A DNA stretch of 40,878 bases from Symbiobacterium sp. (GTDB taxonomy: Bacteria > Bacillota > Sulfobacillia > DUSP01 > DYEP01), in contig DYEP01000122.1 of the NCBI GenBank assembly GCA_020725675.1, positions 1 to 40,878 on the forward strand, read 5' to 3'. A model generated the notes under the pieces. The model saw only the letters and a list, made by a program, of their open reading frames with translations, was not told where the DNA came from and made no database searches. Below are positions 2,927 to 20,661 of this stretch, piece by piece. Every line of letters starts with the position of its first letter. Position 1 is the stretch's first letter. The position numbers and the translations under genes are program-made.

Positions 2927-3892
2927 TCAAGCATTTAAACCGTAAAGCCCCCTCCAGTAGTTCAGGAGATCCAGCAAGGAGCGTTCTATGGAAATCTCGG
3001 GCTTCCAGCCAGTTGCCTTCCTGAACTTTGTGCAGTCGCCACAGAGCACCATGACATCGGATTGTCGGATTCGTGAAGGGTCCTGCCAGATCCGTATGTC
3101 TTTTCTTTTTGATTGGGCAAGAAGCATATGAAGCACTTCCGAGATCTTAAAGCTATTGCCTGAGCAGATGTTGTACACCTCACCGGGTTCGCCATGGAAC
3201 ACAGCCATTACATAACCGCGGACAGTGTCCCTAACATCCGTCAGGTCCCGCCTGGCCTCAAGATTCCCCACAGATATGACCGGCTCTGCCAGACCCGCCT
3301 CAATTTCGGTAATCTGTTTTGCAAAACTGGATTCGGCGAACACGTGCCCCCTCCGCGGTCCCGTGTGGTTGAAAGCTCTAGTCCTTACAACAAAAAGTCC
3401 GTAAGTTTGATGATACTGGTAACCGAGAAGGTCCTGCGCCACCTTGCTCACGCCGTATGGTGACAATGGCCTAAGCGGGTTTTCTTCCTTAATCGGCACC
3501 TCATCCGGATACACCTTCCCATACTCCTCTGATGAGCCGGCGATCTGCAACCTGGTATCAAGCCCCAATTCCACAATGGCCTGAAGAATATTCACCTGTC
3601 CCAGCACGTTTGTCTGAAAAGTCTTAAGAGGCGCCACCCAGGACGTCGGTACAAAGCTCTCTGCGGCCAAGTGAAAGATCACCCGTGGTTTAACCTGCAA
3701 AAGGGTTCTCCTTACCGCAGACTGGTCGACGATATCACACTCGACCAGCTTGACCTCTGTGAGGTGCTGAATGTTTTCCATCCGGCTCCTCCAGCGGTAG
3801 GTGCCGTACACTTCAAAGTCTCCGGTAGCAAGCAGGTATTCAGCAAGATGGCTCCCGGCAAACCCCGTGATGCCTGTAATCAACGCCCTCAA
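2927..3892 (-). CDS. GDP-mannose 4,6-dehydratase-like SDR enzyme
   Basis: An extended short-chain dehydrogenase/reductase of 321 residues, closest by eye to the GDP-mannose 4,6-dehydratase/RMD group. Such enzymes make GDP-4-keto-6-deoxymannose or its reduced product. The N-terminal Rossmann motif is TGITGFAG (Gly 7, 10, 13). The active site shows SSEEYGK (120-126) and YGVSK (Tyr146, Lys150). NHTGPRRG and GNLEARRDLTDVRD are typical of the group. The start is a TTG with GGGGAGG 8 nt before it. It is the last gene of the 9574-2927 unit, after ugd. Dehydratase and reductase branches cannot be separated by eye; some GMD-fold proteins do both. With the nucleotidyltransferase and PGI/PMI upstream, a GDP-6-deoxysugar donor is plausible. 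Confidence 0.85.
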   Translation of the reverse strand: MRALITGITGFAGSHLAEYLLATGDFEVYGTYRWRSRMENIQHLTEVKLVECDIVDQSAVRRTLLQVKPRVIFHLAAESFVPTSWVAPLKTFQTNVLGQVNILQAIVELGLDTRLQIAGSSEEYGKVYPDEVPIKEENPLRPLSPYGVSKVAQDLLGYQYHQTYGLFVVRTRAFNHTGPRRGHVFAESSFAKQITEIEAGLAEPVISVGNLEARRDLTDVRDTVRGYVMAVFHGEPGEVYNICSGNSFKISEVLHMLLAQSKRKDIRIWQDPSRIRQSDVMVLCGDCTKFRKATGWKPEISIERSLLDLLNYWRGLYGLNA

Positions 3893-3980
3893 CAGATAAA
3901 CCTCCCCAAGAAGGGTATGTCTCCCTCATCATATACCAAGTCCCGAAAAAAGGTGCCAGAGGTAGCACTACCGCACGCAG

Positions 3981-5180
3981 TCAGGTACCCAGCGGGAAAT
4001 AGGCGATTCCGCATCGGCGCAGGACCGAGGGTTCAAGCATCATGCGTGCATCGTACACCTGCGCTCTTTTCATCCTGCGGCGTATCTCTGTCCAATCAAG
4101 ACTCAAAAACTCTTGCCACTCAGTCATCACCAGCAGGCACGTGGCACCCTCTACCACAGCATAAGGGTCCCTGCCCGGGGTAAGAGCCGGGTCGAATACA
4201 GAAACGAAAAGCCCCGCTGCCCGCAGCCGGTCATATACCCTCACCGCCACGGATTCTGCAGTGTCATCCGTGCCTGCCTTGAACGCAAGCCCAAAACCGG
4301 CCACAGGACCGCCTCCTGCTAGCTCACAGACCCGTCTCACAATCAGGTCTTCCAGCATGGAGTTTGTTGCCTGCAGTACAAACGCGGCATGTGCGTTTAT
4401 CCCGTGCGAGGCAGCGAGACGGTATGTGGCTCTCGTGTCCTTCGGCAGGCATGGCCCCCCCACCCCGGGACCGGGCATGAACGCTCCCGGACCTATCCGC
4501 GGATCCGCTGCGATCGCTTCAAGCACCCTGCGGGCATCACAGCCTTCGGCAGCACACAACACCGAGAGGAAATTGGCAACCGATATCTTGATCCCGAGAG
4601 TCAAATTAGCGCCTAGTTTGATTAGACACGCTTCCTCAGGAGTGGTAACAAACCGGGGGATGGTATTCGGGTACCCCAGGCAGGCATCGACTATTTCTGC
4701 CACAACCCTGGAGTAGGCGCCGATTACAAGCCTGGTTGGCTCAATGGTATCCTGAAGCGCCCTGCCCTCTCTCAGGAATTCCGGGCATACCGCGATCCGG
4801 TCTCCCACTATCGTTCGCGCCTGCCTGAGCACCACAGGAGTGACCGTGCTTCTTAAGACCACAGGGTACCCGCCGCAGGGCAGAGCGCTGCATGCCTCTA
4901 CCACATACTGCTCATTCATTACGCCCGCGGCATCAACAGGTGTCCCTACGCATATGAAACAAATATCGTAATCGCCAGGGGGACAAGCAGGAGCAAACAC
5001 GATCCTGTTCCTTGCGATACACTCATTCAAACCTTCTTCCGCATACGGAGAACGCCCAGCCGAGAGCATACCAAGCCGTGCTGCGTCTTTTTCAACACAC
5101 GTCACTTCGTGTCCGGTACGAGCCAGGTAACAGGAGGTGGCACTTCCGACGCGCCCGCCTCCGATGACCAGCACTCTCAT
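3981..5180 (-). CDS. ugd: UDP-glucose 6-dehydrogenase family
   Basis: An NAD-dependent nucleotide-sugar dehydrogenase of 399 residues, which would oxidise UDP-glucose to UDP-glucuronate in the cytosol. It has an N-terminal GGGRVG motif (7-12), PEFLREG (133-139), a catalytic-core lysine in LGIKISVAN (Lys198), and the catalytic cysteine in GGPCLPKD (Cys244, Lys247). The usual motif is GGSCFPKD, so Ser and Phe are replaced by Pro and Leu while the Cys and Lys stay. The ATG overlaps the stop of the upstream glycosyltransferase by 4 nt (ATGA). UDP-N-acetylmannosamine or GDP-mannose dehydrogenase activity cannot be excluded; UDP-glucose is the default guess. Confidence 0.87.
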   Translation of the reverse strand: MRVLVIGGGRVGSATSCYLARTGHEVTCVEKDAARLGMLSAGRSPYAEEGLNECIARNRIVFAPACPPGDYDICFICVGTPVDAAGVMNEQYVVEACSALPCGGYPVVLRSTVTPVVLRQARTIVGDRIAVCPEFLREGRALQDTIEPTRLVIGAYSRVVAEIVDACLGYPNTIPRFVTTPEEACLIKLGANLTLGIKISVANFLSVLCAAEGCDARRVLEAIAADPRIGPGAFMPGPGVGGPCLPKDTRATYRLAASHGINAHAAFVLQATNSMLEDLIVRRVCELAGGGPVAGFGLAFKAGTDDTAESVAVRVYDRLRAAGLFVSVFDPALTPGRDPYAVVEGATCLLVMTEWQEFLSLDWTEIRRRMKRAQVYDARMMLEPSVLRRCGIAYFPLGT

Positions 5181-6319
5181 CTGGCCCCCCCCTTGAGCTC
5201 TCCAGCGACTTGCTTTAACCTGTGATACATCCTTTCAACCGACGTCTTCCACGAATAGTTCAAGACCACTCGCCTGGCCATCTCACCCACGCTGCGGGCC
5301 TTCTCCCTGTTCTCATAACAGTATCTGAGCAGCTTAGCCAGCGCCTCTACGTTCGGCCTGGCCCAGTAGCTTCCTCCATACACTTCAGGCCTGTCAGTAG
5401 CAGGTTCAAGACCATCTATCGGGATCAGGAAAGCGGTCTTGTCCGACAGGTAATCCATGTGAGCTCCCCAGCGTGTTGTGATAACGGGAAGCCCACAAGC
5501 CATCGCCTCCATCACGGTGAGGGACCAGCCCTCGCCGCGGGTCGGCAGCACGTAACAGTCGCTTGACCAGTATAGGGCCAGCATCTGGTTGGCTTTGACG
5601 GGTCTTTGGATGATCTCAAGAGCAGGCAGATCGTGCCGCTCAGCCTCGCGACGGAGATTCTCAATCTGCTCAGCCAGACGCGAACCGTCCCGGTCGCTGT
5701 GTCCGAGGCAGCTCGGATAGGTCTTGATAGTGAGCATCACGGGGTCAGACTTCTTGAAGGCTCGGAAGTACGCTCGTAGAAGGAGGTCCGGCCCCTTTCT
5801 ATGGATCCATTCAAACGCCGATAAGAACCTGTAGACATGGCTCCGTCTTGCGGAAGTGGGAGGTTTGAACATCGAGGTGTCAACTCCTAAAGGCATGACC
5901 TGGATCTTCTGGTTAGGTACCCCTCCTGCAACAAACGCCGCCTTGCTCCAGCTGCTCGGTACCCATAATTCATCCACCAACTCACACGCCTTCGCCCATC
6001 CCGGAGTAATGCGGTCAGATTCGATCATCGTCATACCTATCTTGTAAAAGCGCTTTCCTTGCAAATACTCTTGTACGTACCTCCAGAAGGTGGGCGCCGT
6101 AGTACCAAACAGTGCCAAACCGGTATCAGGGATCCTGGAGGTAACGAGCCTATCAATAAGTTCAAGGTGGGGTTTCCGCATCCACTGGGCGCCGTCGCGC
6201 GGTCCTGGCGCGGGCAGAAACACACGCACTCCCATCGCGCACAGGTTACTCACGATGTGGCGGTTGACCTGCGTGTACCCGGAAGTATCATACATGTTAC
6301 CGAAATAGAACACGTCCAT
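5177..6319 (-). CDS. GT4 glycosyltransferase (G)
   Basis: A 380-residue retaining glycosyltransferase of the GT4, GT-B-fold family. It adds a sugar from a nucleotide donor to an acceptor in the cytosol. The C-terminal domain carries the E-x7-E motif in EGWSLTVME (Glu263, Glu271), and QVMPLGVDTSMF is the usual hinge region. The N-terminus (FGNMYDTSGYTQVNRHI) has the GYT loop typical of acceptor-side binding. No membrane segment is visible. It overlaps the preceding gene by one base and ugd by 4 nt, so the group is translationally coupled. Donor and acceptor are unknown; the context points to a spore-surface glycan. Confidence 0.88.
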   Translation of the reverse strand: MDVFYFGNMYDTSGYTQVNRHIVSNLCAMGVRVFLPAPGPRDGAQWMRKPHLELIDRLVTSRIPDTGLALFGTTAPTFWRYVQEYLQGKRFYKIGMTMIESDRITPGWAKACELVDELWVPSSWSKAAFVAGGVPNQKIQVMPLGVDTSMFKPPTSARRSHVYRFLSAFEWIHRKGPDLLLRAYFRAFKKSDPVMLTIKTYPSCLGHSDRDGSRLAEQIENLRREAERHDLPALEIIQRPVKANQMLALYWSSDCYVLPTRGEGWSLTVMEAMACGLPVITTRWGAHMDYLSDKTAFLIPIDGLEPATDRPEVYGGSYWARPNVEALAKLLRYCYENREKARSVGEMARRVVLNYSWKTSVERMYHRLKQVAGELKGGAR

Positions 6320-7398
6320 TAGCGTCTTGCTCCTAACGCGTTTTCGTATAAGTATAATATCTTGGCCACATGCTCTTTAATGGAAAACCTCTCCACTGCA
6401 CGTTTGCGGCCGAGGGCACCGAATCTCCGCCTCAAGCCCTCGGATCTTGCAAGCGTTGCCATGGCCTGGTACAGCGCGCAAGGATCTCTTGGAGGCACAA
6501 GGAGCCCGGTTACATTCTTGATCACGACCTCCGGTATTCCACCTGCGTTAGTCGCTATCACTGCCCGACCCGAAGACATCGCTTCAACAACTACGCGGCC
6601 GAAAGGTTCCTCCCAGGAAGGTAGAACGAGCACGTCTAACGCGGCCATTACCGCAGGCATATCATCCCTGAACCCGGTAAACACCACGCGGTCGGAAAGC
6701 CCGAGCGTACTCACGAGCGTCTTCAGTTCTTCTTTAAACTCGCCTGAGTTGAACAACGAATCCCCTACGATGACGAACTTGCAGGGCAAGCCATCATCTA
6801 CCACCATCTTCGCAGCGTATAAGAAGTCGAGGTGCCCCTTCCATCTGATGACCTGCCCCACTACCCCAAACAGTACCTCGCTCCCGCGCACGTTCCAGGC
6901 CTGCCTAAGATGCGCTCCCTTGACCGTGGGAGCGAACTTCCTCGTGTCAACTCCGTTGTAGATCACTACGATTTTCTGGTAAGGGACCACTGTGGCAAGC
7001 CTCCTTTTGACGGCGGAAGACACCGCTATCAAGTAGTCCGCTGCCGCGCTGCTTTGCAACGCATTTCGTTCCCACATCGGTACCATGTCGCGGCAGTGCC
7101 CGATGCAGACTGTGTTTCGCATCCTGGCCAGGTTCAGGCTAAGCGGAATGGCTCGAAACGCGTTGGAGTGGATGAGGTGCGGAGCATAGGCGGCTACTTT
7201 CCCCACAAGTTCTGTACCATAGAAGAACACCTCCACTCCCAGCGCAGCCAGCTCAGTAGAAAAGCGTCCCGGCCCCCTGCATACTACCGTTGGATGGACT
7301 AGACTTCTGTCCATGGCCGCCAGCATCTCAAGCAGGCTCCTTTGTGCTCCCCCGATCTCTGATACATGATCCACGTACAATACCCTGAGTGTAGCCAT
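6319..7398 (-). CDS. GT4 glycosyltransferase (F)
   Basis: A GT4-family glycosyltransferase of 359 residues. The N-terminus has the EIGGAQRSL motif that forms the nucleotide-phosphate loop in this family. VVIYNGVDTRKF marks the hinge, GQVIRWKGH the start of the donor domain, and EEPFGRVVVE the E-x7-E motif (Glu264, Glu272), followed by TNAGGIPEVV. These features suit a nucleotide-sugar donor but do not tell which one. The ATG starts 5 nt after the preceding gene's stop, and its own stop overlaps the next start by one base (TAATG). Confidence 0.88.
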   Translation of the reverse strand: MATLRVLYVDHVSEIGGAQRSLLEMLAAMDRSLVHPTVVCRGPGRFSTELAALGVEVFFYGTELVGKVAAYAPHLIHSNAFRAIPLSLNLARMRNTVCIGHCRDMVPMWERNALQSSAAADYLIAVSSAVKRRLATVVPYQKIVVIYNGVDTRKFAPTVKGAHLRQAWNVRGSEVLFGVVGQVIRWKGHLDFLYAAKMVVDDGLPCKFVIVGDSLFNSGEFKEELKTLVSTLGLSDRVVFTGFRDDMPAVMAALDVLVLPSWEEPFGRVVVEAMSSGRAVIATNAGGIPEVVIKNVTGLLVPPRDPCALYQAMATLARSEGLRRRFGALGRKRAVERFSIKEHVAKILYLYENALGARR

Positions 7399-7403
7399 TG
7401 TAT

Positions 7404-8474
7404 TTACCGCCCCCCGGCCGCCAGCTTATATGCGGCAACGGTTTGCTCAACAGTGTTGGACCAAGTGTAGGTGACCACCCTCGCCCTGCCAGTATATACC
7501 ATCTTGGCACCAGTACCCGCATCTCCAAGCACCTTGGCCATCGCATTCGCTATGCTCTCTACGTCTGTTGGATCAAAGTACATACATGCACCGCCTCCTA
7601 TCTCTTCGAGCTCAGGTAAACGAGATGCGACACAAGGGACTCCGTATGCCATGGCTTCAAGTACAGGTAGCCCAAACCCCTCGGCGAGGCTCGGGTACAC
7701 AACAAGGTCAGCCTTCGCGTAAAGATTTCGCAGGGTGCGTTCGCTCACATACCCCGGGCACAGCACCTTGTCCTGCAGACCCAGGTCACGCACCAGCGCA
7801 GCCGCCTGGCTATACGCTCGAACCCTTTCGCCCAGGACCAGCAGCTTATGGTCAAAACCCTTTCGCACAAGCAGAGCATACGCTCGGATCAGGTTAGGCA
7901 CGTTCTTTCTCCAATTGAACCCGCCCACATATAGGATGAAGGGGAATGGTGCATGAAGCCTCGGTATGGCGGGAGGGGCCCCGGGAGGAGCGATGAATAT
8001 GCGGTCTGCGGGATAACCGGTCAACTCGGTGATCATCTTCTTTGACTGCCTGGAGATTGTGATAATGGCCTTGCAGTGATGGACCACCCTTGTGATATAA
8101 GATGTGAAGTGCTGTCTGTACGCTGCATCCACCAGTTCGGGATGAGTAAAGGGTATCATATCAAAAATAGTTGCAACCATTGTAGGATGGTTTCTGCACA
8201 CTCCAAGCCCGTTTTTCACCAGGTGATACACCGTGAAAGGCACCCGTGTCATCCACTGCATATTCTTTGGAGAGTCAGTCCTTATGTGCCCCTCAAGCAC
8301 CCTGAAGGCAGGGCCCATCTTTCTTAATTCTTCAGGAACCGGCGGATTTACCAGACCCAACACCTCAATTCCGCTTTGAACATGGGCAAAAGCACGGATC
8401 AGGCCAATAGAGTACGCTGCGATCCCATCTTTGTTCTGCAAAACGTTCTGGTGGAGGTCCATCAGCACTCGCAT
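7404..8474 (-). CDS. GT4 glycosyltransferase (E)
   Basis: A 356-residue GT4 glycosyltransferase of the mannosyltransferase-B-like type (N-terminus LHQNVLQNKDGIAAYS). FILYVGGFNWRKN opens the donor-binding domain, and EGFGLPVLE (Glu265, Glu273) is the E-x7-E motif, followed by ASRLPELEEIGG. The start overlaps the end of the upstream glycosyltransferase by 13 nt. A mannosyl donor would fit the GDP-mannose enzymes in the island, but substrate assignment from sequence is not safe. Confidence 0.88.
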   Translation of the reverse strand: MRVLMDLHQNVLQNKDGIAAYSIGLIRAFAHVQSGIEVLGLVNPPVPEELRKMGPAFRVLEGHIRTDSPKNMQWMTRVPFTVYHLVKNGLGVCRNHPTMVATIFDMIPFTHPELVDAAYRQHFTSYITRVVHHCKAIITISRQSKKMITELTGYPADRIFIAPPGAPPAIPRLHAPFPFILYVGGFNWRKNVPNLIRAYALLVRKGFDHKLLVLGERVRAYSQAAALVRDLGLQDKVLCPGYVSERTLRNLYAKADLVVYPSLAEGFGLPVLEAMAYGVPCVASRLPELEEIGGGACMYFDPTDVESIANAMAKVLGDAGTGAKMVYTGRARVVTYTWSNTVEQTVAAYKLAAGGR

Positions 8475-9574: not shown

Positions 9575-9619
9575 ATTCTCTCCTCCCGTTTGGCCCTGTG
9601 GTGTTTGCCTTGCGCCTTA

Positions 9620-9628
9620 CAGCTTATG
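9620..9628 (-). promoter_or_regulatory. CATANNNTG element before the GT-ugd-dehydratase unit
   Basis: CATAAGCTG on the minus strand, 45 nt before the GTG at 9574, with AACA 17 nt upstream. This fits a sigma-K-type pattern (AC, about 16-17 nt, CATANNNTA) except for the last base. A weak sigma-A alternative, TTGGAA-17-TACATA, overlaps it. Confidence 0.4.
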
Positions 9629-9667
9629 TAAAGCTACACGCAGAGTGTTCCAACAAGACATTTCGGT

Positions 9668-9697
9668 GAAAACTGAGAGGGCCGGCTTTTCCGGCCC
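9668..9697 (-). terminator. Terminator after the triple-SPOCS gene
   Basis: GGGCCGG (minus, 9697-9691) and CCGGCCC (9685-9679) form a 7-bp all-GC stem with a 5-nt loop, followed by TCTCAGTTTTC. The T-tract is imperfect but the position, about 20 nt after the stop, supports a terminator. Confidence 0.7.
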
Positions 9698-9717
9698 CCC
9701 TTCCCCTCGTGACTGCT

Positions 9718-11022
9718 TTACGGGTCGGCGACGGTCAGTTCTTGTGTTTGTGTGACCTTGACCTGTATTCTGATAACCACCTTTTGAGTAAGTTCACCCG
9801 TCTGAGGATCGAACTCGAACGCCAATGATTCTACGAACGAGTGGTCTTGCTGGTTCATGCCACTGCGTGCGGGAACATCGGGATCCAGCGGATCGATCTC
9901 CACCATTTCGGAAAAGTCGATATCTTCACTGATGTGATGAACTAGTCCATCTGTTCCCACAAAGAAGATCTGCTTGTGCAATCTACCTTGGACAATCACT
10001 TTTCCTTCTTTCACCACAGACGTTACATCCCGAATGAAAGCCTGGATGTCCACTATCTTAATGGCGTCTGGAAGCGGGATGGTGGTCTCGATTAGCCTTT
10101 GTTTGTCGCCGTGACCGATCACCAGTTCCGTCTTGATGGGTATTCCGTATGGGTCCAACGCTACCGGTACCTGCTGGGTCTCCGTGACCACTACCCGTAC
10201 CAGTATGATGACCTTCTGTACCAACACCCCGGTGGCGGGATCAAGCTCGAAGACCAGGTTTTCCACAAAGCCAGTAAATGTCGCCGTCATGCCCGGCCTT
10301 GCTGGCACGTCAGGATTCACTGGTTCGATCTCCACTAGCTCGCTCCAGTTGATCTCCTCCTGGATGTGGTGAACGATATTGTCCGTGGCCACAAAGAAGA
10401 TCTGTTTGTGCAGTATGCCCTGGACTATGGCTTTACCGTTCTTCAAGATTACCCTCACGTTCCGAAGGTGAGTGACAATATCTGTGATCTTTATGGCGCC
10501 AGGGATATGGATTTCATGTCTTATGAATTTCTGTTTTTCACCTTCGCCGATCTTCACCGGTGTCTTGATTACCGGCCCAAGCGGGTCAAGCAGAACGTTC
10601 AGATCTTCCGTCTCGGTTACTACCAGGTCAAGAGCGATGATCACCTTCTGAATGAGCTGGCCCGTAGCCTCGTCGAACTCGAATACCACGTTTTCCACTA
10701 CAGAGTGGTCCTGTACGTTCATGCCAGGTGCCGCAGGTCTTTCCGGGTCCACTGGGATGATGTCTACCAGCTCATTGAAGTCGATATCCTCCGCCAGGTG
10801 GTGCTCCAGACCGTCAGTAGCGATGAAGAAGATCTGCTTGTGCAGTACTCCTTGAACTATCACCTTGCCGTGTCTCACGATGAACCGCAGATTCCTGAGC
10901 GATGGAACGATCTCTACAATCTTCACTGCATCGGGAATGGTCTTTGTCTCTTCAATAAGGGTCTGCTTAAACCCGCGGCCTATGACTCGTTGGACAGTCA
11001 TTAACAGTTTTCCTTCAGGCAC
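9718..11022 (-). CDS. Triple SPOCS (DUF3794) domain protein
   Basis: A 434-residue protein made of three tandem SPOCS domains and almost nothing else. SPOCS is the domain of Clostridioides difficile SipL that binds the coat ATPase SpoIVA; proteins with it are linked to spore coat assembly. Each unit has the pattern PDAVKIVDI, GKVIVQGxLHKQIFFV, TDGLVHHI, PxDPDVPARxGM, VENLVFEFDPxTGxLxQKV. It is beta-rich, with no signal peptide, membrane segment or LysM domain (SipL has a LysM). The GTG start has GGGGGG about 8 nt upstream; an ATG seven codons later is possible. It sits alone between a 163-nt leader and a terminator. Its role as a structural or scaffold coat protein is inferred. Confidence 0.85.
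   Translation of the reverse strand: MPEGKLLMTVQRVIGRGFKQTLIEETKTIPDAVKIVEIVPSLRNLRFIVRHGKVIVQGVLHKQIFFIATDGLEHHLAEDIDFNELVDIIPVDPERPAAPGMNVQDHSVVENVVFEFDEATGQLIQKVIIALDLVVTETEDLNVLLDPLGPVIKTPVKIGEGEKQKFIRHEIHIPGAIKITDIVTHLRNVRVILKNGKAIVQGILHKQIFFVATDNIVHHIQEEINWSELVEIEPVNPDVPARPGMTATFTGFVENLVFELDPATGVLVQKVIILVRVVVTETQQVPVALDPYGIPIKTELVIGHGDKQRLIETTIPLPDAIKIVDIQAFIRDVTSVVKEGKVIVQGRLHKQIFFVGTDGLVHHISEDIDFSEMVEIDPLDPDVPARSGMNQQDHSFVESLAFEFDPQTGELTQKVVIRIQVKVTQTQELTVADP
9718..11022 (-). repeat. Three 432-nt coding repeats (144 codons each)
   Basis: The marker AAGAAGATCTG(C/T)TTGTGCA recurs at about 9961, 10393 and 10825 (plus coordinates), exactly 432 nt apart both times. Units are roughly 11022-10591, 10590-10159 and 10158-9718. 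The equal spacing with no indel shows in-frame tandem duplication of one SPOCS unit. Confidence 0.85.
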
Positions 11023-11149: not shown

Positions 11150-11158
11150 CAATCTATG
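11150..11158 (-). promoter_or_regulatory. CATANNNTG element before the triple-SPOCS gene
   Basis: CATAGATTG on the minus strand with AACA 15 nt upstream, in the 163-nt gap between the two SPOCS genes. It lies 127 nt from the GTG, much further than in the other leaders, so either the leader is long or this copy is fortuitous. Confidence 0.3.
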
Positions 11159-11185
11159 CACTACGACTAATTCTGTTACTGTCCC

Positions 11186-12283
11186 CTAAGGGTCGATGAA
11201 CTGGCCATTCACGGTTACTGCAGTAACCACCTGAAGCGGTACCGGGAACGGATTGCTGTCGTTGACCACATCCACGAATATGGTCGTCTTTTGAACGTCG
11301 GTCACTCCCGGACCTTTGACGTCGGTCACGACTGAAATGACCTCGGTGTCCACCCGTATCTGGACCTTGTCTACCTGGGTGATGCCGGGACCTGATATGT
11401 CGGTCATGACAACCACTTCTTGAGTGGGCGTAACGACCACGGCTCTGATGAGCAGCACGATCTTCTGAGTCAGCACATGTTCCGCGACGTTCAGCTCGGG
11501 TATGATGAATTCGATATCAACGGTCACCTGTACTGGGTCCTGCGGTGTGATACCGGGAAACGAAAGCGAGTGTGTGAAAGGGATCTGTTCCTTCACCACA
11601 CGCACGATGTTGTCAGGCCCAACAAAGGCAATCGTCTTTTCGATCACGCCTGTGACCACCAGCATATCTATGAGCACGACAGCCTGTACGTTCACAACCT
11701 TTGCGTCAATCCGCTTTATCTTTATTGCATCAAGCGGCGTCCGAGCGACAACCAGCACCTGCTCTTTGACCTCGCGAATCTCTCCTACACGGATGCGCTC
11801 TTTTTTTACGCGGATGAACTCCTTCGTGATTACGATCAGTACCTGTTCAGTCTTTTCAAAACCCTGGTTTTCCAGGAGTTCGAACTGGTCGAAGACTGGG
11901 TCTTGTAGCTCACCACGAACCGTGATTTTCAGTACGATCTTCTGGACAATCGCGCACCTGTCAGGCGTGAGATGGAACAAAACGAACTCCACCTCCGCCT
12001 CCACCTCCACAGGCGTATCCGGCTTCACTCCTGGTATGGAAAAGAAATGCTGGAACGGGATGGTCTGCCTGCGCTCGCGAACCACTCCGGTAGCGTCCAC
12101 AAACAGAACCTGATCGTCCAACGTTCCTTGAACTATTACCCCGTTTGCCACGGCCGTAGCCTTGATGGAGGCTATGCTCACAAACACATCCTTGATCTTG
12201 ATGATGGGACAGGTATCCTCTGATACCTGAAGCGTTTCCATCGGCCACTCTTCACCGTGAGCCTGGCGCCTAAGCTGTCTCAA
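11186..12283 (-). CDS. Double SPOCS (DUF3794) domain protein with C-terminal repeats
   Basis: A 365-residue protein with two SPOCS domains, about residues 20-140 and 185-305. Each carries the signature NGVIVQGTLDDQVLFVD or DMLVVTGVIEKTIAFVG, then IPFQHFFSIPGV or IPFTHSLSFPGI. A charged linker (ITKEFIRVKKERIRVGEIRE) joins them. The C-terminus holds a 26-residue imperfect repeat, TDISGPGITQVDKVQIRVD and TDVKGPGVTDVQKTTIFVD, ending near FPVPLQVVTAVTVNGQF. No signal or membrane segment. The start is a TTG preceded by AAGGGGGTGAT, a near-perfect ribosome-binding site; an ATG 14 codons later has a poorer site. Probably a cytoplasmic, mother-cell coat-assembly protein; binding to SpoIVA is inferred from SipL only. 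Confidence 0.85.
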   Translation of the reverse strand: MRQLRRQAHGEEWPMETLQVSEDTCPIIKIKDVFVSIASIKATAVANGVIVQGTLDDQVLFVDATGVVRERRQTIPFQHFFSIPGVKPDTPVEVEAEVEFVLFHLTPDRCAIVQKIVLKITVRGELQDPVFDQFELLENQGFEKTEQVLIVITKEFIRVKKERIRVGEIREVKEQVLVVARTPLDAIKIKRIDAKVVNVQAVVLIDMLVVTGVIEKTIAFVGPDNIVRVVKEQIPFTHSLSFPGITPQDPVQVTVDIEFIIPELNVAEHVLTQKIVLLIRAVVVTPTQEVVVMTDISGPGITQVDKVQIRVDTEVISVVTDVKGPGVTDVQKTTIFVDVVNDSNPFPVPLQVVTAVTVNGQFIDP

Positions 12284-12315: not shown

Positions 12316-12362
12316 CCTGATTGACAGAAAGGGACTGATTCTCTCTGTCCGCACAGAACGCT

Positions 12363-12398: not shown

Positions 12399-12423
12399 CG
12401 CTTTTAGGCTTGAGATCCCCTGT

Positions 12424-13470
12424 TTAAGTCAGCATATCGCGGTAAGTCTTGAGTACGGTCTGCGCAGTCTTCTCCCATGTATACTGCTTCACCAACTCCT
12501 GCCCCGCCCTGGCCTTCGCCCTGGCGAAATTCGCATCTTCCAACACCCTAAGGCATGCCTCTGCGATGTCGTCCGGTCTCTCAGGCTCCACGTAGGCAAC
12601 AGCGTCTTTCACCACCTCAGTCATGGCCGGCTTGCGCGAGCAGACTACAGGTATGCCGCAAGCGAAGGCTTCAAGAGGAGGCAGTCCGAATCCCTCCTTG
12701 AAAGACACGTATACCAGTGCCGCAGAAGCATTGTACAGCATCACCAGTTCTTCGTCCGCAACCACATCGAGAAAGGCCAGACACTGAGGGTCAAGCCCGA
12801 TGGACTCCGCATACGCCCTGGCCTTTTGCCTTCTGGACTTGCTGGTACCGACCACGACTAGCTTCACTTTTTGCCTCCTTCTCGTTATCGCGATCATCGC
12901 CTCGATTACGCCCCACAGATTTTTTCTCGGATACTCGGCTCCCACCATAAGGAGGAAATCATCGCTTAGACCGAGTTCTTTCTTCACCCAGGACCGGGCA
13001 ATCACCGGATCTATCTTTCTAAACACTTTCCTGGGTGCCAGCGGGATTACCCGTATGCTGGCTTCCGGTACCCCTGCAATCTTGACCAGATCCTTCATTG
13101 ACGCGACAGAGGGCACTACCAGGATCCGAGCAGACCTAATTGCCCGGTTCAAGGCATCTTCCATCTTGCGCCTGGTAGAATCGGCGTACTCGTGGGACCG
13201 GGTCAAAAACAACACATCGTGGATTCCGACGATGCTAGGTTCAAACCCCAGGTATCTACTGAAAAACACCGGGTAGTGAAATATCTGGATATCGCACGAC
13301 TTGACCGATTCCAAAGTCAAAGGCCTTCCACCGGCGGGTATGTTCCGTGCGGCACCGAAAAAGAACCATGAATACCTGGGTTCCTCAGCAACCAGCGCCC
13401 TCGCTAGATCTGCTGCGTATGCCGCTGATGTCCCTGGCTCAGAACAGCTTATGTCAAATGCAATCCTCAA
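12424..13470 (-). CDS. GT4 glycosyltransferase (C)
   Basis: A GT4 glycosyltransferase of 348 residues from the chosen start. LRIAFDISCSEPGTSAAYA is the N-terminal beta strand and acceptor loop, IRVIPLAPRKVF the hinge, FLLMVGAEYPRKN the donor-domain start, and EGFGLPPLE (Glu259, Glu267) the E-x7-E motif. The frame is open far upstream, but the first 100 codons are low-quality Pro/Arg/Cys sequence overlapping the preceding gene. I take the TTG at 13470: GGGGGTGAG lies just before it and it starts 4 nt after the upstream stop. An ATG at 13506 is the alternative. It is the last gene before the terminator. Confidence 0.87.
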   Translation of the reverse strand: MRIAFDISCSEPGTSAAYAADLARALVAEEPRYSWFFFGAARNIPAGGRPLTLESVKSCDIQIFHYPVFFSRYLGFEPSIVGIHDVLFLTRSHEYADSTRRKMEDALNRAIRSARILVVPSVASMKDLVKIAGVPEASIRVIPLAPRKVFRKIDPVIARSWVKKELGLSDDFLLMVGAEYPRKNLWGVIEAMIAITRRRQKVKLVVVGTSKSRRQKARAYAESIGLDPQCLAFLDVVADEELVMLYNASAALVYVSFKEGFGLPPLEAFACGIPVVCSRKPAMTEVVKDAVAYVEPERPDDIAEACLRVLEDANFARAKARAGQELVKQYTWEKTAQTVLKTYRDMLT

Positions 13471-13474
13471 AGCC

Positions 13475-14482
13475 TCACCCCCTAACAGTCCGGCGTCGCT
13501 TCGCATTTGCGACAGCGCTCCGATATATCTCAAGATGTTCCGCGGCGGAGGTCGCCCACCCCGGCAGCGTAACATTCTCCCGGTCACTGGAAATAGCCGT
13601 CTCAATGGCACGCCGGATGGACCCCTCGTCGTCAGGATCGCAGTACACGGCGCCCCTCCCAAGGTACTCTTCGGCCGTTCCCCTTTCTGTGGATACACAT
13701 TTCGCTCCGCACGCGTACGCCTCCAGCGTGGACAGCCCGGGCAGCTCATATAAACTGGGCAATACGTGCACAAGGCATGAAGAATAAGCGTCCCACAGCG
13801 TTGGTTTGTCGAGGTGGCCCACGTAAAACACCCTCTGTCCTTCCTGCTTTATCCTGGCCAGGTAATACGGGTCATTCACGCTCCCTGCAAAAACCACTGG
13901 AATGCCCATATGTCGAACAGCACGTACCAGCGCCAGCTGGTTCTTGTGCGGGCAGATCCGGGCAGCCTGGAAGATGAACTGCTTGAGCCCATAAGTCTTG
14001 TGAAACACCGCCCGCGCCACAAATGGGTCAACTCCCACTCTGATTACCCTTACGTTACCGCACCCCAGGTCGTTCTCCAGCTGCCTTTTCTCCGCATTGC
14101 CTGTTGCCAGTATGCACCAAGCGTGCTGCGAAGCTGCTCGCAAGTATGCCTTTCTCCGCTCCCACATGCTGTACTCCGCCAAGGCGGACCGCCGCAGCAG
14201 GGACTCCCCTACGGACCAGTACATTGCCGTGACGATCACGGGCAAACCTGAACTAACAGCCTGAGAGAAATAGGCCCAATGCCTCTCCAACGCGTGGCCG
14301 CCGACGAAGTGCACCAGTGAGGCTGAGTCTGACGGGCCTTCTATCACACGTACCCCAAGGTCCGACAGTGCACGCCCCAGCCTGACGGCCAGGTTCACAT
14401 CTCCGGCAGGTAGCAACGAAGCTTCCTTCCTGAAGATCAGGCTTACGGTGAGCGATCCGTCAAGGTTTGACTTTGCTTCCAT
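13475..14482 (-). CDS. GT4 glycosyltransferase (B)
   Basis: A divergent GT4-type protein of 335 residues. The donor-binding half is clear: FIFQAARICPHKNQ, RVFYVGHLDKPTLWDAYSSC, and an E-x7-E motif ELPGLSTLE (Glu246, Glu254) followed by YACGAKCVSTERG. The N-terminal half is less typical and keeps only short blocks such as GLPVIVTAMYWS. I chose the ATG at 14482, which has GAGGTGATGGG directly upstream; this overlaps the end of the SPOCS-like gene by 40 nt. The longer frame to 14539 adds residues without a ribosome-binding site. Confidence 0.83.
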   Translation of the reverse strand: MEAKSNLDGSLTVSLIFRKEASLLPAGDVNLAVRLGRALSDLGVRVIEGPSDSASLVHFVGGHALERHWAYFSQAVSSGLPVIVTAMYWSVGESLLRRSALAEYSMWERRKAYLRAASQHAWCILATGNAEKRQLENDLGCGNVRVIRVGVDPFVARAVFHKTYGLKQFIFQAARICPHKNQLALVRAVRHMGIPVVFAGSVNDPYYLARIKQEGQRVFYVGHLDKPTLWDAYSSCLVHVLPSLYELPGLSTLEAYACGAKCVSTERGTAEEYLGRGAVYCDPDDEGSIRRAIETAISSDRENVTLPGWATSAAEHLEIYRSAVANAKRRRTVRG

Positions 14483-15681
14483 CCCATCACCTCGCTGAGA
14501 GTGGCCTTGCAGTTGACTATACCGAACACGTTTAGCCACTCTTTTTCATAGTTCCAGACCAAGTCAACGACGGGAGGCTCGCACTCCACTTCCGTCAAGG
14601 GACCGGCCTCACCGCAGTAGGCGATAGTGCCAGAAAACGGCATGGAAAACCCCTCTCTGAACAATACTCCGCCAAATGCGTAAGAAACGTCTGCTTGAAC
14701 CGTTCCTTCTATTATCAGTCGCTTGGCACAAAGCGTTGCACGCAAGTCAGATGAGATAAGATGAACACCGAACGGTTGTGCAGGTACACGTTGCCTGTGA
14801 CAAAACAGAATATCCCCGAAGGCATGGCCTACTGTGCGTCGTAGCAGGATGTCAGACCCGGGAACGTACGCAACGCGCAGTTGGTGGGTGCCGTGTACTG
14901 AAAGTACGATTTCCACATCGTGGCATACTCTGACCCACCCATCCTCGAGCCATGCCCGGGAGGGAGTCGCGTCCACGGACGTACTAAGCTGCCCTTCCGG
15001 TACGTCCCTGAACACCTCGTGGTGTTCTGACGCAAGGCAGATAGCCCACGATGGGTCGGAAAACTTCGGTGTCACCTGCCAAGTGGAACGGCATTCAACC
15101 ACCACGTGCCGGCCCATTCGAGTCACAGCCAGCACTTGAACCTTGCTGTCCCTGATTTCAACTTCTGCCCAGAATGTCCGGCAACTTGCAGTCTGGCCAA
15201 ACCGCCTCCGCGCGCTCCACACTGACACGGGCAGTTGCACAAGTATGCCCTGGGCATCATGCAAAAGTTCGATCTGGCATCGCTCCATGCTCCGCCAGCG
15301 AAGGGTCAACGTGGCGTACAGCCAAACTGCATCATCATTGGATAAGAATTGTGCGACTTCGTCCACCACTTCCACAATAAGTTGGTCGCTCACACACTCA
15401 ACTGGTACTGAGCTCACCCAATGGTGTACTGACTCTTTGGACGAAAGCAACGTGCCTTCAACCAGGTTGAGCACGAACACTGTCCGGCCCGCTACAACAG
15501 AATGTGCTACCCAGTCGATGGAAGAGTGTGATCTGACGGAAGATACCCTCTCCCCTGCGCGTACGGGGAAGAGTGCCTCCTGCATCAGAGTAAACGTCCC
15601 CTCGCCGCCAATTCGCAGCGCCTCCGCCGTATATGTGCGCAAAACCGGGCGGGGGCCAGAAGGCATTCTCCGTGACCCCAA
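14443..15681 (-). CDS. Divergent SPOCS-like (DUF3794-like) protein
   Basis: A 412-residue, beta-rich protein in the middle of the glycosyltransferase operon. I do not recognise it at full length. The last 110 residues (KRLIIEGTVQADVSYAFGG, then MPFSGTIAY and VECEPPVVDLVW) follow the SPOCS pattern of strand, IVEGT, aromatic turn, PF and a final strand. Two earlier stretches, about 40-130 and 190-270, repeat a similar rhythm (RTVFVLNLVEGTLLSS; VSSVPVECVSDQLIVEVV). So it may be a third, highly diverged multi-SPOCS protein. The start is a TTG with only AAGG near it; an ATG five codons on, with GGAG, is possible. A 128-nt gap separates it from the upstream GT gene. Confidence 0.6.
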   Translation of the reverse strand: MGSRRMPSGPRPVLRTYTAEALRIGGEGTFTLMQEALFPVRAGERVSSVRSHSSIDWVAHSVVAGRTVFVLNLVEGTLLSSKESVHHWVSSVPVECVSDQLIVEVVDEVAQFLSNDDAVWLYATLTLRWRSMERCQIELLHDAQGILVQLPVSVWSARRRFGQTASCRTFWAEVEIRDSKVQVLAVTRMGRHVVVECRSTWQVTPKFSDPSWAICLASEHHEVFRDVPEGQLSTSVDATPSRAWLEDGWVRVCHDVEIVLSVHGTHQLRVAYVPGSDILLRRTVGHAFGDILFCHRQRVPAQPFGVHLISSDLRATLCAKRLIIEGTVQADVSYAFGGVLFREGFSMPFSGTIAYCGEAGPLTEVECEPPVVDLVWNYEKEWLNVFGIVNCKATLSEVMGWKQSQTLTDRSP

Positions 15682-15809
15682 TAACCTTAAAACAGCACTC
15701 TTTACCCCGCTAGCATGATCGCGTCCCCTTCGTGGCCGAGTCTCATCATGGCAGCTTCATTAATGATTATTGTCAGTCGGGAAGCTTCATGCGAGACAGA
15801 TTCCTGGTC

Positions 15810-16850
15810 TCACCGCAGCAGACCGGAATATGCACGAATCGCGGAGACCGCTAGATTGAACTCCCGTTTTGCCCTCGCTCTTCCGTATTCACCGAGTGAC
15901 TCCCTCAAGCGCCCGTCTCCGAGCAGTCTTATGATACACTGGGCGATCTCTTGGGGATCAGACGGCTGCACGAGATACCCGCTTTTCTCGTGTACCACTG
16001 CCTCCTCAGCGCCTCCATGCCTGCCTCCTACCACAGCCAGCCCACGAGCACCTGCCTCGATGAACGTGAGCCCAAATCCCTCCACACTATCGCCTTCCTG
16101 CCTGCATGGCATCACATAGATCTGCCCCATGTCATAACTTTCAGCAAGGTTTGAGTGGGGTACGGCACCTTCGAATCTCACCCTGGCATTTACCTTCTTG
16201 GCCTCAGCGCGCAAGCGCGCTTCATCCGGGCCAGCTCCCACAATCACGTATATCGCTCCAGGAAACTCCTTCATGACCTGAGGCCATGCCCGGATCACCA
16301 TATCCTGTCCCTTGCGAGGTACGAGCCGTGCTACCGTGACAGCGGAAGGTCCGGGGAAGCGCCTCTGAGGAGTTGAGAACCGAGCCACATCAATCCCTGG
16401 ATAGGCCACATGACACCTGCTTATACCCAGTGTGTTGTGAAGCAGACGCGCTGTGTACTTGCTGATAGCGATAATTCGGATTGAAGACATAAGAGCACGC
16501 AGCAGCCGGTCCTGTCTTTCAGGCGAGCGCGGAATGCCGAGCAGTTCTGTGCCAAATACACTCGTTACGTATGGCAAGCCTGAAAACACATGGTGAAGGT
16601 GAATCTGGCTTTGCCAGTCCACAAGATGTACCAGGTCCGGCCTGTGCTCCCGCAGCAGCCTTGACCACGTACGCTCTCGCAGGAACTCGCCGTGAGGTAT
16701 GACTGTCACGCCCTGCTCATATCCCGTTCCTGGAATGACAAGCATCGCGCGATGATGCATCTGAACAAGCCCCCGGCGCAGATTCCGAGCGTAGCTCTGG
16801 ACACCACCAAAAGAGCCTGCAGGCTCTGCGCAAACTAGCATTATCTTCAA
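15810..16850 (-). CDS. GT4 glycosyltransferase (A), PimA-like
   Basis: A 346-residue GT4 glycosyltransferase with the classical layout. N-terminal GSFGGVQSYARNL (nucleotide loop), HVAYPGIDVARF (hinge), TVARLVPRKGQD (donor domain) and EGFGLTFIE (Glu257, Glu265) followed by RHGGAEEAV. It resembles phosphatidylinositol-mannosyltransferase-type enzymes, though no lipid acceptor is implied. The start is TTG, overlapping the upstream stop as TTGA, with GGGTGAT 5 nt before. It directly follows the nucleotidyltransferase. The reading frame stays open for 35 codons after its stop. Confidence 0.9.
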   Translation of the reverse strand: MKIMLVCAEPAGSFGGVQSYARNLRRGLVQMHHRAMLVIPGTGYEQGVTVIPHGEFLRERTWSRLLREHRPDLVHLVDWQSQIHLHHVFSGLPYVTSVFGTELLGIPRSPERQDRLLRALMSSIRIIAISKYTARLLHNTLGISRCHVAYPGIDVARFSTPQRRFPGPSAVTVARLVPRKGQDMVIRAWPQVMKEFPGAIYVIVGAGPDEARLRAEAKKVNARVRFEGAVPHSNLAESYDMGQIYVMPCRQEGDSVEGFGLTFIEAGARGLAVVGGRHGGAEEAVVHEKSGYLVQPSDPQEIAQCIIRLLGDGRLRESLGEYGRARAKREFNLAVSAIRAYSGLLR

Positions 16851-17755
16851 GTAAGATCACCCACGATGGAGCCTTCTATCTGGGCGTAGGCTCTCACGTG
16901 CGCTCCCGGGAGTATGACCGAACGTATAATGCTGGCGCCCTCCCCCACCACAGCGCCTGCGCCGACCGTAGTGTACGGGCCTATAGAAGCCGAGCTACTG
17001 ATCCGGGCTTCCGGCGAGATACAACAAGGCGGGATCACCTGGAAATTGCAGCTGGGCGGAGTGCCTTGAAAAACCGCCATTTTCTGCATGAGTTCGTAGT
17101 GTGCATTCAGGTACCTTTCATGCGTACCCAAGTCAGACCAGAATCCACGGAACACATGCGCCCGGAGACGGCCGCGGCTTGAGAGCACCGGAAACAGGTC
17201 ACGCTCCAACGATGCACTTTCTCCCCCGGCCAGCAGCATCACGTCCTGCTTCCACAGGCGGTATAGCCCCGCATTAATAAAGCCCGACGTAGCTTCCCCA
17301 GGCTTTTCGGTGAACCCTTCAATCATCTCATTCTCGCAACGGACCAATCCGAACCCTGTGGCATCAGTGACCTCGTGCACCACGATCACCGATTCATCGC
17401 ATAAGCCCATCTTTGGAAGATCCCCGAAGAAACAGACATCTCCGTTCATTACAAAGAACCATTCTCCTTGTATGATGTCGAGGGCAGAGCGGACAGCCCC
17501 GCCCGTCCCGAGCGGCCGAGATTCATAACGGACATGGACTTTGGGAAAGACGCAACTACTTTCCAGTACTGAGACAATTCTCCGGCCTGATGCGTTGACC
17601 AGCACTACCAGCCGTGTTGCACCGAGCGACCGCAGAAACTCGGCCTGCCTGACCACAATAGGTACGTTCAAGAGGGGCATTAGGGGCTTTGGAGTTTTGT
17701 AAGTGAATGGCCTGAGCCTTGTGCCCAGACCGCCCGCAAGTATTACCGCATCCAT
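16847..17755 (-). CDS. Sugar-1-phosphate nucleotidyltransferase (ManC/RmlA-like)
   Basis: A 302-residue NDP-sugar pyrophosphorylase, converting a sugar 1-phosphate and NTP to NDP-sugar and pyrophosphate. The signature AGGLGTRLRPFT (7-18) with KPLMPL, the metal-binding aspartate in MNGD (Asp106), EKP and FINAGLY are all present. Residues after about 240 form a short left-handed beta-helix (CISPEARISSSASIGPY, VVGEGASIIRSVI). This layout is typical of mannose-1-phosphate guanylyltransferases and related enzymes. It lies between the PGI/PMI-type isomerase and a GT, overlapping both (13 and 4 nt). With a GDP-mannose dehydratase in the island, GDP-mannose is the best guess for product; dTDP- or UDP-glucose is possible. 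Confidence 0.88.
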   Translation of the reverse strand: MDAVILAGGLGTRLRPFTYKTPKPLMPLLNVPIVVRQAEFLRSLGATRLVVLVNASGRRIVSVLESSCVFPKVHVRYESRPLGTGGAVRSALDIIQGEWFFVMNGDVCFFGDLPKMGLCDESVIVVHEVTDATGFGLVRCENEMIEGFTEKPGEATSGFINAGLYRLWKQDVMLLAGGESASLERDLFPVLSSRGRLRAHVFRGFWSDLGTHERYLNAHYELMQKMAVFQGTPPSCNFQVIPPCCISPEARISSSASIGPYTTVGAGAVVGEGASIIRSVILPGAHVRAYAQIEGSIVGDLT

Positions 17756-18744
17756 CCTCGATCACTCCGCATGCGTGTTTTCAGATATTCAATGAAGGCG
17801 ATCTCTAACGGGTCAATTCCTGCCGCTTGAGCTAGGTACAGACTGATGTAGCTGCCGAGCAGGTGCAAATAGAGCGTCTGGGCCACGGACGAACCTCCTT
17901 CAGGCAAGATCTGAAACACAGCAGCGCGAGAGCCCAGAACCTGCAGGTAGAGGTCGATGACCTCACGGAGCGGCGAGGACTCTTGCGGATGTCTGAGCGC
18001 CACGAAGACGGTTTCCTGCCCCACCGAGAGTCCGAGCGCAACCGCTTCGTTATGCAGCGTCTCGGGCAGGGTGGAGGAAACAGCGGGCATCTTTGCATTT
18101 TCGCAAAGCTCACATTTCCACCTGTATGCAGCAGCTTCCGTCAGACCGTACACACCGAGTACGTAGATGCGCCTGTCCTTAAGTCTGGATGCAATCTCGT
18201 GGGGCAGTGCGTCATTGCACAGCCATCTGGCGTGCAACGTTTCAGCCATAAGCAAGCATTCCTCCACATCAAAGACCACTTCCGCAAGGCCTGATGCGCG
18301 CAACATGGCAAGCACAGCAAAACCCATGTAATATGTGGCGATCCTCGGAACGAGCCCGCCGGGAACCGGCACTATCCTTGACGATGGAAGGTTTGCTAAC
18401 TCCCCACCGGAACACACGCTGAACGCGCTCGCTCCCTGCTCGAGGCACTGCCGGTGCGCAGCCAGCGTTTCCCATGTAGAACCCGAGTAGCTGATGCTAA
18501 TTGTTGCAGTGCGCTTCCCCACCCATCGGGGCACAGGCCAGGTACCGATCTCGCAGGGTACCACGAGCGCACCCCGGGTCGCTTCAAGTGCGAACCTGCC
18601 CGCCGCTGCGGACCCTCCCACTCCGTTTATAAACACTGAGTCACATTCCCGTAGATGCACACTCTCCCCTGCATGATATCCCTGTTTCAGCAGGTCTTTG
18701 ACCATTTTTAGGTAATTTAACATCCTCGGGTCAACGGCTGTCAT
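17743..18744 (-). CDS. SIS-domain phosphoglucose/phosphomannose isomerase-like
   Basis: A 333-residue protein of the bifunctional PGI/PMI family, interconverting fructose 6-phosphate with glucose or mannose 6-phosphate. The phosphate-binding motifs NGVGGSAAAG and SYSGSTWETL are clear, then PRIATYYMGF, and the catalytic block ETLHNEAVAL with the glutamate/histidine pair. The C-terminal FIEYLKTRM matches the family's final lysine helix. I chose the ATG at 18744; the longer frame overlaps the DegT-like gene by 100 nt with non-typical sequence, while this start overlaps by 14. It would feed mannose 6-phosphate to the next gene, but a phosphomannomutase is not in the window. Confidence 0.86.
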   Translation of the reverse strand: MTAVDPRMLNYLKMVKDLLKQGYHAGESVHLRECDSVFINGVGGSAAAGRFALEATRGALVVPCEIGTWPVPRWVGKRTATISISYSGSTWETLAAHRQCLEQGASAFSVCSGGELANLPSSRIVPVPGGLVPRIATYYMGFAVLAMLRASGLAEVVFDVEECLLMAETLHARWLCNDALPHEIASRLKDRRIYVLGVYGLTEAAAYRWKCELCENAKMPAVSSTLPETLHNEAVALGLSVGQETVFVALRHPQESSPLREVIDLYLQVLGSRAAVFQILPEGGSSVAQTLYLHLLGSYISLYLAQAAGIDPLEIAFIEYLKTRMRSDRGWMR

Positions 18745-19759
18745 TTTGTGATAACACCCCTGGAGAATACTGTGCAACCGCCTCTGCAACGATTTCCAGC
18801 TGCTCTCTGCTGAGTTGTTCGTGTACCGGTATGCACACCGTCTCACGCGTGGCCCTCTCGGCGTTCCGGCATGGAAGGGGCGATTTGGCTTCGTGGAAGT
18901 ACTCTGAAACCAGAGACGGGCCAGGCACTGACGCCTCTACCCCGTAACCGCGCATATGGTCGACAAAGGCTTGAACGTCCCGAACACGGAGGACGTACCT
19001 GGTGTATATGTGAAAACACCTGCAGCCTTCTCGTGGTACTGACACGTACGGGCTATTGATGCGGGTATAGTAGTAAACGGCCGCATATCGCCTGCGGGCA
19101 TTGGTTGTCATTACGTTCCCTAGCAGTTGCCGTGCCAGCCGGGCATAGCAGGGTTCCATGCGAGTGGCGAGCGCTTGCACGATGCGTTCGGCTATCTCCC
19201 CACTGCGGGCGACTACCGCGCCACCGTGGCCTACAGGAAGCGCCGAGCCTCGTGCAAAGCTGAAAACAGCCACATCTCCGAAGGTGCCCGCGGGCTGTTC
19301 TTTGTGAGCGCTGCCGAAAGAACCGCCGCAGTCCTCGATGAGTAAGAGGCCCGCATCTCTAGTTATGCCTACCAGCGATTGCATGTTGGCACATTGCCCG
19401 AAGAGGTGGCTCACAATGACTCCCTTTATGCCGGTCTCCCTTGCCAGTACCTCTCGGAGCGACTCGGGCTTTATGTTGTAGGTATCTTCGTCTATGTCCA
19501 CAAGTACGGGAATAGCGCCTACAGATGCCACCTCCTCAATGACAGGACGGTAGGTGTAAGCAGCAATAGCCAGCCTGTCACCCACCTTGATATTTAGAGC
19601 TGTGAGCGCTGAACGAAGACAGCTCCTGCCTGAGGCAGCGGTATAAAGGTGGCTCACCCGAAGAGAGTGCCTCAGCGCTTCCTCGAACGAGGTTACCTCA
19701 CTACTGTCCGCCTCAGAAGATATATCTGGCAAATCATACGAAGGATCCAGGAAAATCAC
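18731..19759 (-). CDS. DegT/DnrJ/EryC1-fold protein lacking the catalytic lysine
   Basis: A 342-residue member of the DegT/StrS sugar aminotransferase family. The fold is intact: SGRSCLRSALTAL (cofactor phosphate region), VDIDEDTYNI, VSHLFGQCANM, and the PLP-ring aspartate in IEDCGGSFGS (Asp143). In active enzymes the internal aldimine lysine follows as SFxxxKxLxxGxGG. Here it reads FSFARGSALPVGHGG, with Ser172 where lysine belongs and no other lysine nearby. Normal transamination is therefore unlikely; it may be a dehydratase-like variant (ColD has His there), a binding protein, or inactive. It opens the seven-gene operon: GTG start, GGGGAGG 7 nt upstream, CATAAAATG 38 nt upstream. Confidence 0.87.
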   Translation of the reverse strand: MIFLDPSYDLPDISSEADSSEVTSFEEALRHSLRVSHLYTAASGRSCLRSALTALNIKVGDRLAIAAYTYRPVIEEVASVGAIPVLVDIDEDTYNIKPESLREVLARETGIKGVIVSHLFGQCANMQSLVGITRDAGLLLIEDCGGSFGSAHKEQPAGTFGDVAVFSFARGSALPVGHGGAVVARSGEIAERIVQALATRMEPCYARLARQLLGNVMTTNARRRYAAVYYYTRINSPYVSVPREGCRCFHIYTRYVLRVRDVQAFVDHMRGYGVEASVPGPSLVSEYFHEAKSPLPCRNAERATRETVCIPVHEQLSREQLEIVAEAVAQYSPGVLSQNDSR

Positions 19760-20656: not shown

Positions 20657-20661
20657 CTATT

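What the first reader, a model, noticed from the sequence alone, without database searches (positions are those of the whole stretch)
2927..19759. Candidate spore-surface glycosylation island built on SPOCS proteins
Seven GT4 enzymes, four sugar-nucleotide genes, a DegT-fold protein and three SPOCS proteins are packed between ribU and spoVM, splitting the usual rpe-spoVM-rpmB neighbourhood. SPOCS proteins bind SpoIVA in the SipL system, and SpoVM anchors SpoIVA in B. subtilis, so physical linkage to spoVM is meaningful. The proposal is that the SPOCS proteins are coat scaffolds and perhaps the acceptors of a GDP-6-deoxysugar and glucuronate-containing glycan.
Basis: inference. Interest (0 to 1): 0.75.

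Follow-up and report, generated by a model that had tools for sequence, protein, structure and literature searches.

The report
Spore-coat glycosylation island with SPOCS proteins
This 17-kb gene cluster from an uncultured spore-forming Bacillota most likely makes a sugar coat, plus its protein scaffold, for the outside of the spore; related scaffold-plus-sugar-transferase clusters recur in dozens of other spore formers, but the link to the gene spoVM looks peculiar to this one genome.

Summary
2927-19759 (minus strand) carries seven GT4 enzymes, a GMD-like dehydratase, UDP-sugar dehydrogenase, mannose-1-P guanylyltransferase-like protein, PGI/PMI, a DegT-fold protein, two clear SPOCS proteins and one probable divergent one, lying between ribU and spoVM/rpmB. 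Relatives of the 3-repeat SPOCS protein were found at 55 loci; 36 of 37 source genomes tested encode SpoIVA. At 27 loci an orthologue of one particular GT4 (13475-14539) lies on the same strand, usually just downstream of SPOCS genes. Neighbourhoods hold other spore-coat genes: yabG, GH18-LysM, CAP genes and LysM-type sipL. SPOCS genes in the relatives carry sigma-K-like promoters far above controls (32/44 vs 34/219); the window has three near-consensus copies. The spore-surface reading is well supported. SPOCS proteins as glycan acceptors is untested; their Ser-poor sequence gives no support. Verdict: a new variant of a known kind (compare the B. subtilis sps operon). In the papers searched, the SPOCS+GT4 module is undescribed.

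The parts
2332..2529 (+). rpmB (L28), outer flank
   Evidence: read directly from the sequence and translated
2541..2624 (-). spoVM (27 aa), flank; linkage to the island not conserved
   Evidence: sequence; peptide pattern
2656..2832 (-). 59-aa ORF with a hydrophobic stretch, upstream of spoVM
   Evidence: sequence; no NCBIfam hit
2853..2881 (-). sigma-K-like motif AACA-N16-CATAGAATG upstream of the 59-aa ORF/spoVM
   Evidence: 3 matches in window, 0.26 expected; pattern set after seeing near-matches
2927..3892 (-). GDP-mannose 4,6-dehydratase-like SDR with catalytic SSEEYG and YGVSK motifs
   Evidence: PF16363 E=3e-81; motifs
3981..5180 (-). nucleotide-sugar 6-dehydrogenase (UGDH type), catalytic GGPCLPKD
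5177..6319 (-). GT4 a
   Evidence: PF00534
6319..7398 (-). GT4 b
   Evidence: PF00534
7404..8474 (-). GT4 c
   Evidence: PF00534
8462..9574 (-). GT4 d
   Evidence: PF00534
9620..9649 (-). sigma-K-like motif AACA-N17-CATAAGCTG upstream of GT4 d
9718..11022 (-). three-repeat SPOCS protein (434 aa), no LysM/SH3 domain; repeats 56-59% identical
   Evidence: PF12673 E=3e-25; repeats; model pLDDT 94.5
11150..11177 (-). sigma-K-like motif AACA-N15-CATAGATTG upstream of the three-repeat SPOCS gene
11186..12283 (-). two-repeat SPOCS protein (365 aa)
   Evidence: PF12673 E=4e-17
12424..13470 (-). GT4 e
   Evidence: PF00534; start read from sequence
13475..14539 (-). GT4 f, the glycosyltransferase whose orthologues recur next to SPOCS genes (true start perhaps near 14482)
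14443..15681 (-). probable divergent SPOCS protein overlapping GT4 f
15810..16850 (-). GT4 g
   Evidence: PF00534
16847..17755 (-). mannose-1-phosphate guanylyltransferase-like nucleotidyltransferase
   Evidence: PF00483; NF052502 146 bits, below cut-off
17743..18846 (-). bifunctional phosphoglucose/phosphomannose isomerase-like
   Evidence: PF10432; NF006426 169 bits, below cut-off
18731..19759 (-). DegT-fold protein without the catalytic lysine (SFARGSALPVGHGG)
   Evidence: PF01041; sequence
19880..20464 (-). ribU, outer flank (FMN riboswitch 20528-20658)

Best explanation
The island is a late mother-cell (sigma-K-type) spore-envelope cluster. Its soluble GT4 enzymes and sugar-nucleotide genes build, in the mother-cell cytoplasm, a glycan containing mannose/6-deoxyhexose and uronic acid, for the outside of the forespore. 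Its SPOCS-only proteins are long beta-strand structural proteins of the same layer, attached to the coat by SPOCS-SPOCS contacts with SipL-type proteins rather than by binding SpoIVA. GT4 f is the conserved glycosyltransferase of the module. Shown: gene content, recurrence, gene neighbourhoods, statistics of promoter-like motifs. Inferred: mother-cell expression in this organism, the sugars, the location, the way of anchoring. Whether the SPOCS proteins are themselves glycosylated is open.
For: Gene set. No flippase, polymerase or initiating phosphoglycosyltransferase among the island proteins, as expected for cytoplasmic assembly on a coat rather than an exported polymer. 55 related SPOCS loci; 36 of 37 source genomes tested, and the window's own, encode SpoIVA. 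GT4 f orthologue at 27 loci, same strand, mostly 0-230 bp behind a SPOCS gene. Phylum search with the GT alone: all 6 genomes that were not already in the list and have a strong GT4 f hit have SPOCS within 6 kb, and members without SPOCS often lie by yabG, GH18-LysM or CAP genes. LysM-type SPOCS (sipL-like) genes in the same locus as SPOCS-only genes in L019, L022, L041, L049, L054, L056, L064. Sigma-K-like motif upstream of SPOCS genes 32/44 vs 34/219 controls, P=1.5e-13, shuffle mean 2.7 of 44. Precedents: sigma-K sps operon for coat polysaccharide (PMC517825; PMC7439481); SpoVID SPOCS binds CotE (PMC10867305); a CotSA-type GT found on Moorella spores (PMC8745062).
Against: The window has no exact sigma-K consensus; its three motifs end in TG, and the pattern was fixed after seeing them (14 genome-wide, fewer than the 21 of the reversed-pattern control). 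GT4 f genes with their own upstream gap lack the motif (1 of 14). The two relatives of the same order encode SpoIVA and a SipL-like protein but have no SPOCS island. SpoIVA is common in the group anyway (55 of 61), so its co-occurrence discriminates weakly. No expression or protein data exist.
Confidence: 0.75

Rival explanations
1. Vegetative capsule, cell-wall or exopolysaccharide cluster that happens to sit beside sporulation genes; the SPOCS proteins are cytoplasmic accessory proteins.
For: GT4, UGDH, GMD and PMI genes are typical of capsule loci; GT4 f genes have no sigma-K-like motif of their own.
Against: No flippase, polymerase, ABC exporter or initiating phosphoglycosyltransferase; SPOCS+GT4 f pairs recur among coat genes (yabG, GH18-LysM, LysM-type sipL); sigma-K-like promoters upstream of SPOCS genes.
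Confidence: 0.12
2. One reading: SPOCS proteins dock on SpoIVA/SpoVM at the basement layer and are the glycan acceptors.
For: Physical proximity to spoVM in this genome.
Against: SipL binds SpoIVA through LysM (PMC6436350); island SPOCS proteins lack LysM/SH3; spoVM linkage not seen elsewhere; the SPOCS proteins are Ser-poor (9 Ser in 434 aa) with no mucin-like tract.
Confidence: 0.1
3. Two independent units that became neighbours: a SPOCS coat-protein pair and a polysaccharide operon, without functional interplay.
For: Several SPOCS loci lack GT4 (L021, L022, L041, L056-L063), and distant GT4 f relatives lack SPOCS.
Against: The SPOCS-GT4 f pairing with conserved order and tight spacing in 27 loci; several GT-only members still lie next to other spore-coat genes.
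Confidence: 0.15

Closest known systems
spsA-L operon of Bacillus subtilis (spore-coat polysaccharide / crust legionaminic acid)
   Same: Late mother-cell, sigma-K operon of glycosyltransferases and sugar-nucleotide enzymes for the spore surface (PMC517825, PMC7439481)
   Different: sps has no SPOCS genes (own knowledge) and makes legionaminic acid; this island is GT4-rich and predicts mannose/6-deoxyhexose/uronate chemistry
SipL (C. difficile) / SpoVID / CotE SPOCS proteins
   Same: Tandem SPOCS domains; LysM-type sipL-like genes lie in the same locus in several relatives
   Different: Island SPOCS proteins are SPOCS only, without the LysM (or SH3-like) C-terminus, with the subfamily motif HKQIFF...HHQAED, and are multi-copy
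CotSA-type spore glycosyltransferases
   Same: Glycosyltransferase associated with the spore coat (found on Moorella spores, PMC8745062)
   Different: GT4 f is a distinct subfamily with a (T/L)PGL..LEA motif in place of EGFG..LEA; relation to CotSA was not tested

Membership tests
SPOCS (PF12673) proteins | SPOCS domain above the curated cut-off | tested here: met
   9718-11022 and 11186-12283 above 23.6 bits
SPOCS (PF12673) proteins | SPOCS domain in 14443-15681 | tested here: inconclusive
   No Pfam hit; E=0.0016 to a SPOCS profile built here; hits checked are SPOCS proteins; fold without alignment uninformative, pLDDT 31.8
SipL | C-terminal LysM domain that binds SpoIVA | tested here: not met
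   Island SPOCS proteins end in SPOCS; this genome's SipL-like protein is on another contig with an SH3-like tail (binding role from PMC6436350)
Spore-surface glycosylation operon (sps type) | GT and sugar-nucleotide genes clustered on one strand | tested here: met
Spore-surface glycosylation operon (sps type) | Mother-cell sigma-K promoter | tested here: inconclusive
   Relatives strongly enriched; window only near-consensus
Spore-surface glycosylation operon (sps type) | Products or sugars on the spore surface | not testable with these tools
   needs spores
Capsule/EPS export locus | Flippase/polymerase or ABC exporter and initiating phosphoglycosyltransferase | tested here: not met
   none among island proteins
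Active DegT aminotransferase | Catalytic lysine | tested here: not met
   SFARGSALPVGHGG has Ser at the Lys position by motif reading

The most novel reading that the evidence does not exclude
SPOCS-only proteins and a dedicated GT4 form a widespread, previously undescribed type of glycosylated outer spore layer (a beta-strand lattice joined to SipL by SPOCS-SPOCS contacts) in Bacillota, taking the place of the crust or exosporium.
Probability: 0.3. Interest if true: 0.75.

Novelty: new variant of a known kind. Interest (0 to 1): 0.55.

Why it matters
The outer spore layers of most non-Bacillus spore formers are unknown, and the known glycosylated ones rest on BclA or crust proteins. A SPOCS-GT4 module conserved across many uncultured Bacillota gives concrete genes to look for on spores, extends SPOCS from a morphogenetic adaptor domain to a multi-gene structural family, and makes the question of which sugars coat these spores testable.

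Tried and rejected
Fold search of the SPOCS model: no solved or viral structure resembles it convincingly (best PDB E=7e-3, TM about 0.1), so no functional hint. Structure of the 412-aa protein from a single sequence: uninformative. Pfam SpoVM model across genomes: too short to detect, it missed even the window's own spoVM; the peptide pattern also found no spoVM where rpmB was present, so absence of spoVM near other islands rests on absence of rpe/rsgA/ribU. Recent horizontal gain: GC of island 0.550 vs right flank 0.556, no sign. Sigma-E promoters: no enrichment. SPOCS as sugar acceptor: no sequence support found.

Full report
OBSERVATION. The window is contig C93 of a 2.56-Mb, 99% complete draft genome. 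On the minus strand, 19759 down to 2927, lie in order a DegT-fold gene, PGI/PMI, nucleotidyltransferase, GT4 g, a 412-aa protein, GT4 f, GT4 e, two SPOCS genes, GT4 d-a, UGDH and a GMD-like gene. Upstream are ribU with an FMN riboswitch, rpe, rsgA and prkC; downstream are a 59-aa ORF, spoVM and rpmB. The NCBIfam equivalog cut-offs are not reached by the GMD, GMPP and PGI proteins, so the exact sugars are inferred. The DegT protein lacks the catalytic lysine by motif reading. GC content is close to that of the flanks.

RECURRENCE. A scan of 84,980 species genomes with the 434-aa SPOCS protein gave 55 loci at 25-60% identity. Scanned with profiles built from window proteins, these loci show tandem SPOCS genes, and at 27 of them an orthologue of GT4 f, on the same strand, usually directly behind the SPOCS3 gene or behind a ~690-aa divergent SPOCS protein. 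That resembles the arrangement of the 412-aa protein and GT4 f in the window. GMD-like genes close to the window's occur at several of these loci. Genomes holding L019-L056 encode SpoIVA in 36 of 37 cases, and so does the window's genome, split over two contig ends. The background rate is high (55 of 61 relatives), so this is consistent rather than decisive.

GT-FIRST CHECK. A profile of GT4 f alone searched in 399 genomes of the phylum found 49 with E<=1e-50. I read 40 regions. Of 23 with strong hits, 21 have SPOCS genes within 6 kb. (In L161 my gene caller missed the GT ORF.) The weaker members lack SPOCS; several of them lie by yabG, GH18-LysM or CAP genes.

CONTEXT. yabG is the one sporulation-specific sigma-K-regulon gene in the genomic signature of sporulation and lies upstream of veg and sipL in C. 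difficile (PMC10681294). SPOCS loci of this family lie near yabG in 8 loci, near CAP genes in 25, near GH18-LysM genes in 4, and together with LysM-type SPOCS proteins in 7. The window genome's own SipL-like protein (L099:8372-10132, three SPOCS plus SH3-like tail) lies elsewhere, with a CAP-like gene about 3 kb downstream.

PROMOTERS. A stricter form gives 16/57 against 16/252, and a second, overlapping set gives 16/25 against 25/200. Loci of related genomes are not independent, so the P values are nominal. Sigma-E shows nothing. In the window no exact site precedes an island gene; a relaxed form ending in TG occurs three times, all intergenic on the coding strand of the island and its spoVM flank. 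That form was chosen after seeing it; its 14 genome-wide matches show it is rare, not that it is validated. TG-ending sites also precede SPOCS genes in relatives L165 and L167 and a GH18-LysM gene in L158.

WHAT FAILS. No rpe, rsgA or ribU gene lies in any related locus, and island-bearing relatives have rpe regions without such an island, so the spoVM linkage is particular to this genome among those examined. The SpoIVA-binding part of SipL is LysM (PMC6436350), which the island proteins lack; SPOCS of SpoVID contacts CotE (PMC10867305). Same-order relatives G001 and G002 have SpoIVA and an SH3-tailed SipL-like protein but no SPOCS-only genes.

STRUCTURE. The three-repeat SPOCS protein is predicted with high confidence (pLDDT 94.5) as long beta strands throughout, with no convincing resemblance to solved folds.

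VERDICT. A spore-surface glycan and scaffold cluster is the best reading (0.75); details of anchoring and acceptor are inference. Literature searches for SPOCS/DUF3794 found no description of this SPOCS-GT4 module, within an open-access library only.

Noticed in passing
window:2656-2832 (-): 59-aa ORF with a hydrophobic stretch directly upstream of spoVM, with a sigma-K-like motif in front of it (2853-2881).
   Followed up: partly
L099:8372-10132; L100; L101: SipL-like proteins of this order end in an SH3-like domain where other SipL proteins have LysM.
   Followed up: partly
window:18731-19759 (-): DegT-fold protein with the catalytic lysine replaced; possibly a pseudoenzyme.
   Followed up: partly
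G000:C244 end and C88 start: spoIVA of this genome is split across two contig ends.
   Followed up: no
window:300-2237 (-): Dynamin-like GTPase follows rpmB where other genomes have a short gene and a ~570-aa gene (asp23/DAK-like by size only).
   Followed up: no
L065-L071, L021: SPOCS genes downstream of yabG, some with LysM (sipL-like) in tandem copies.
   Followed up: partly
L132, L139, L149, L150: GT4 f relatives without SPOCS lie by yabG or GH18-LysM genes, three of them beside a 970-1108-aa GT4 protein.
   Followed up: no
L097: A 189-aa SPOCS-like protein lies several kb downstream of rpe in one island-bearing genome (G072).
   Followed up: no
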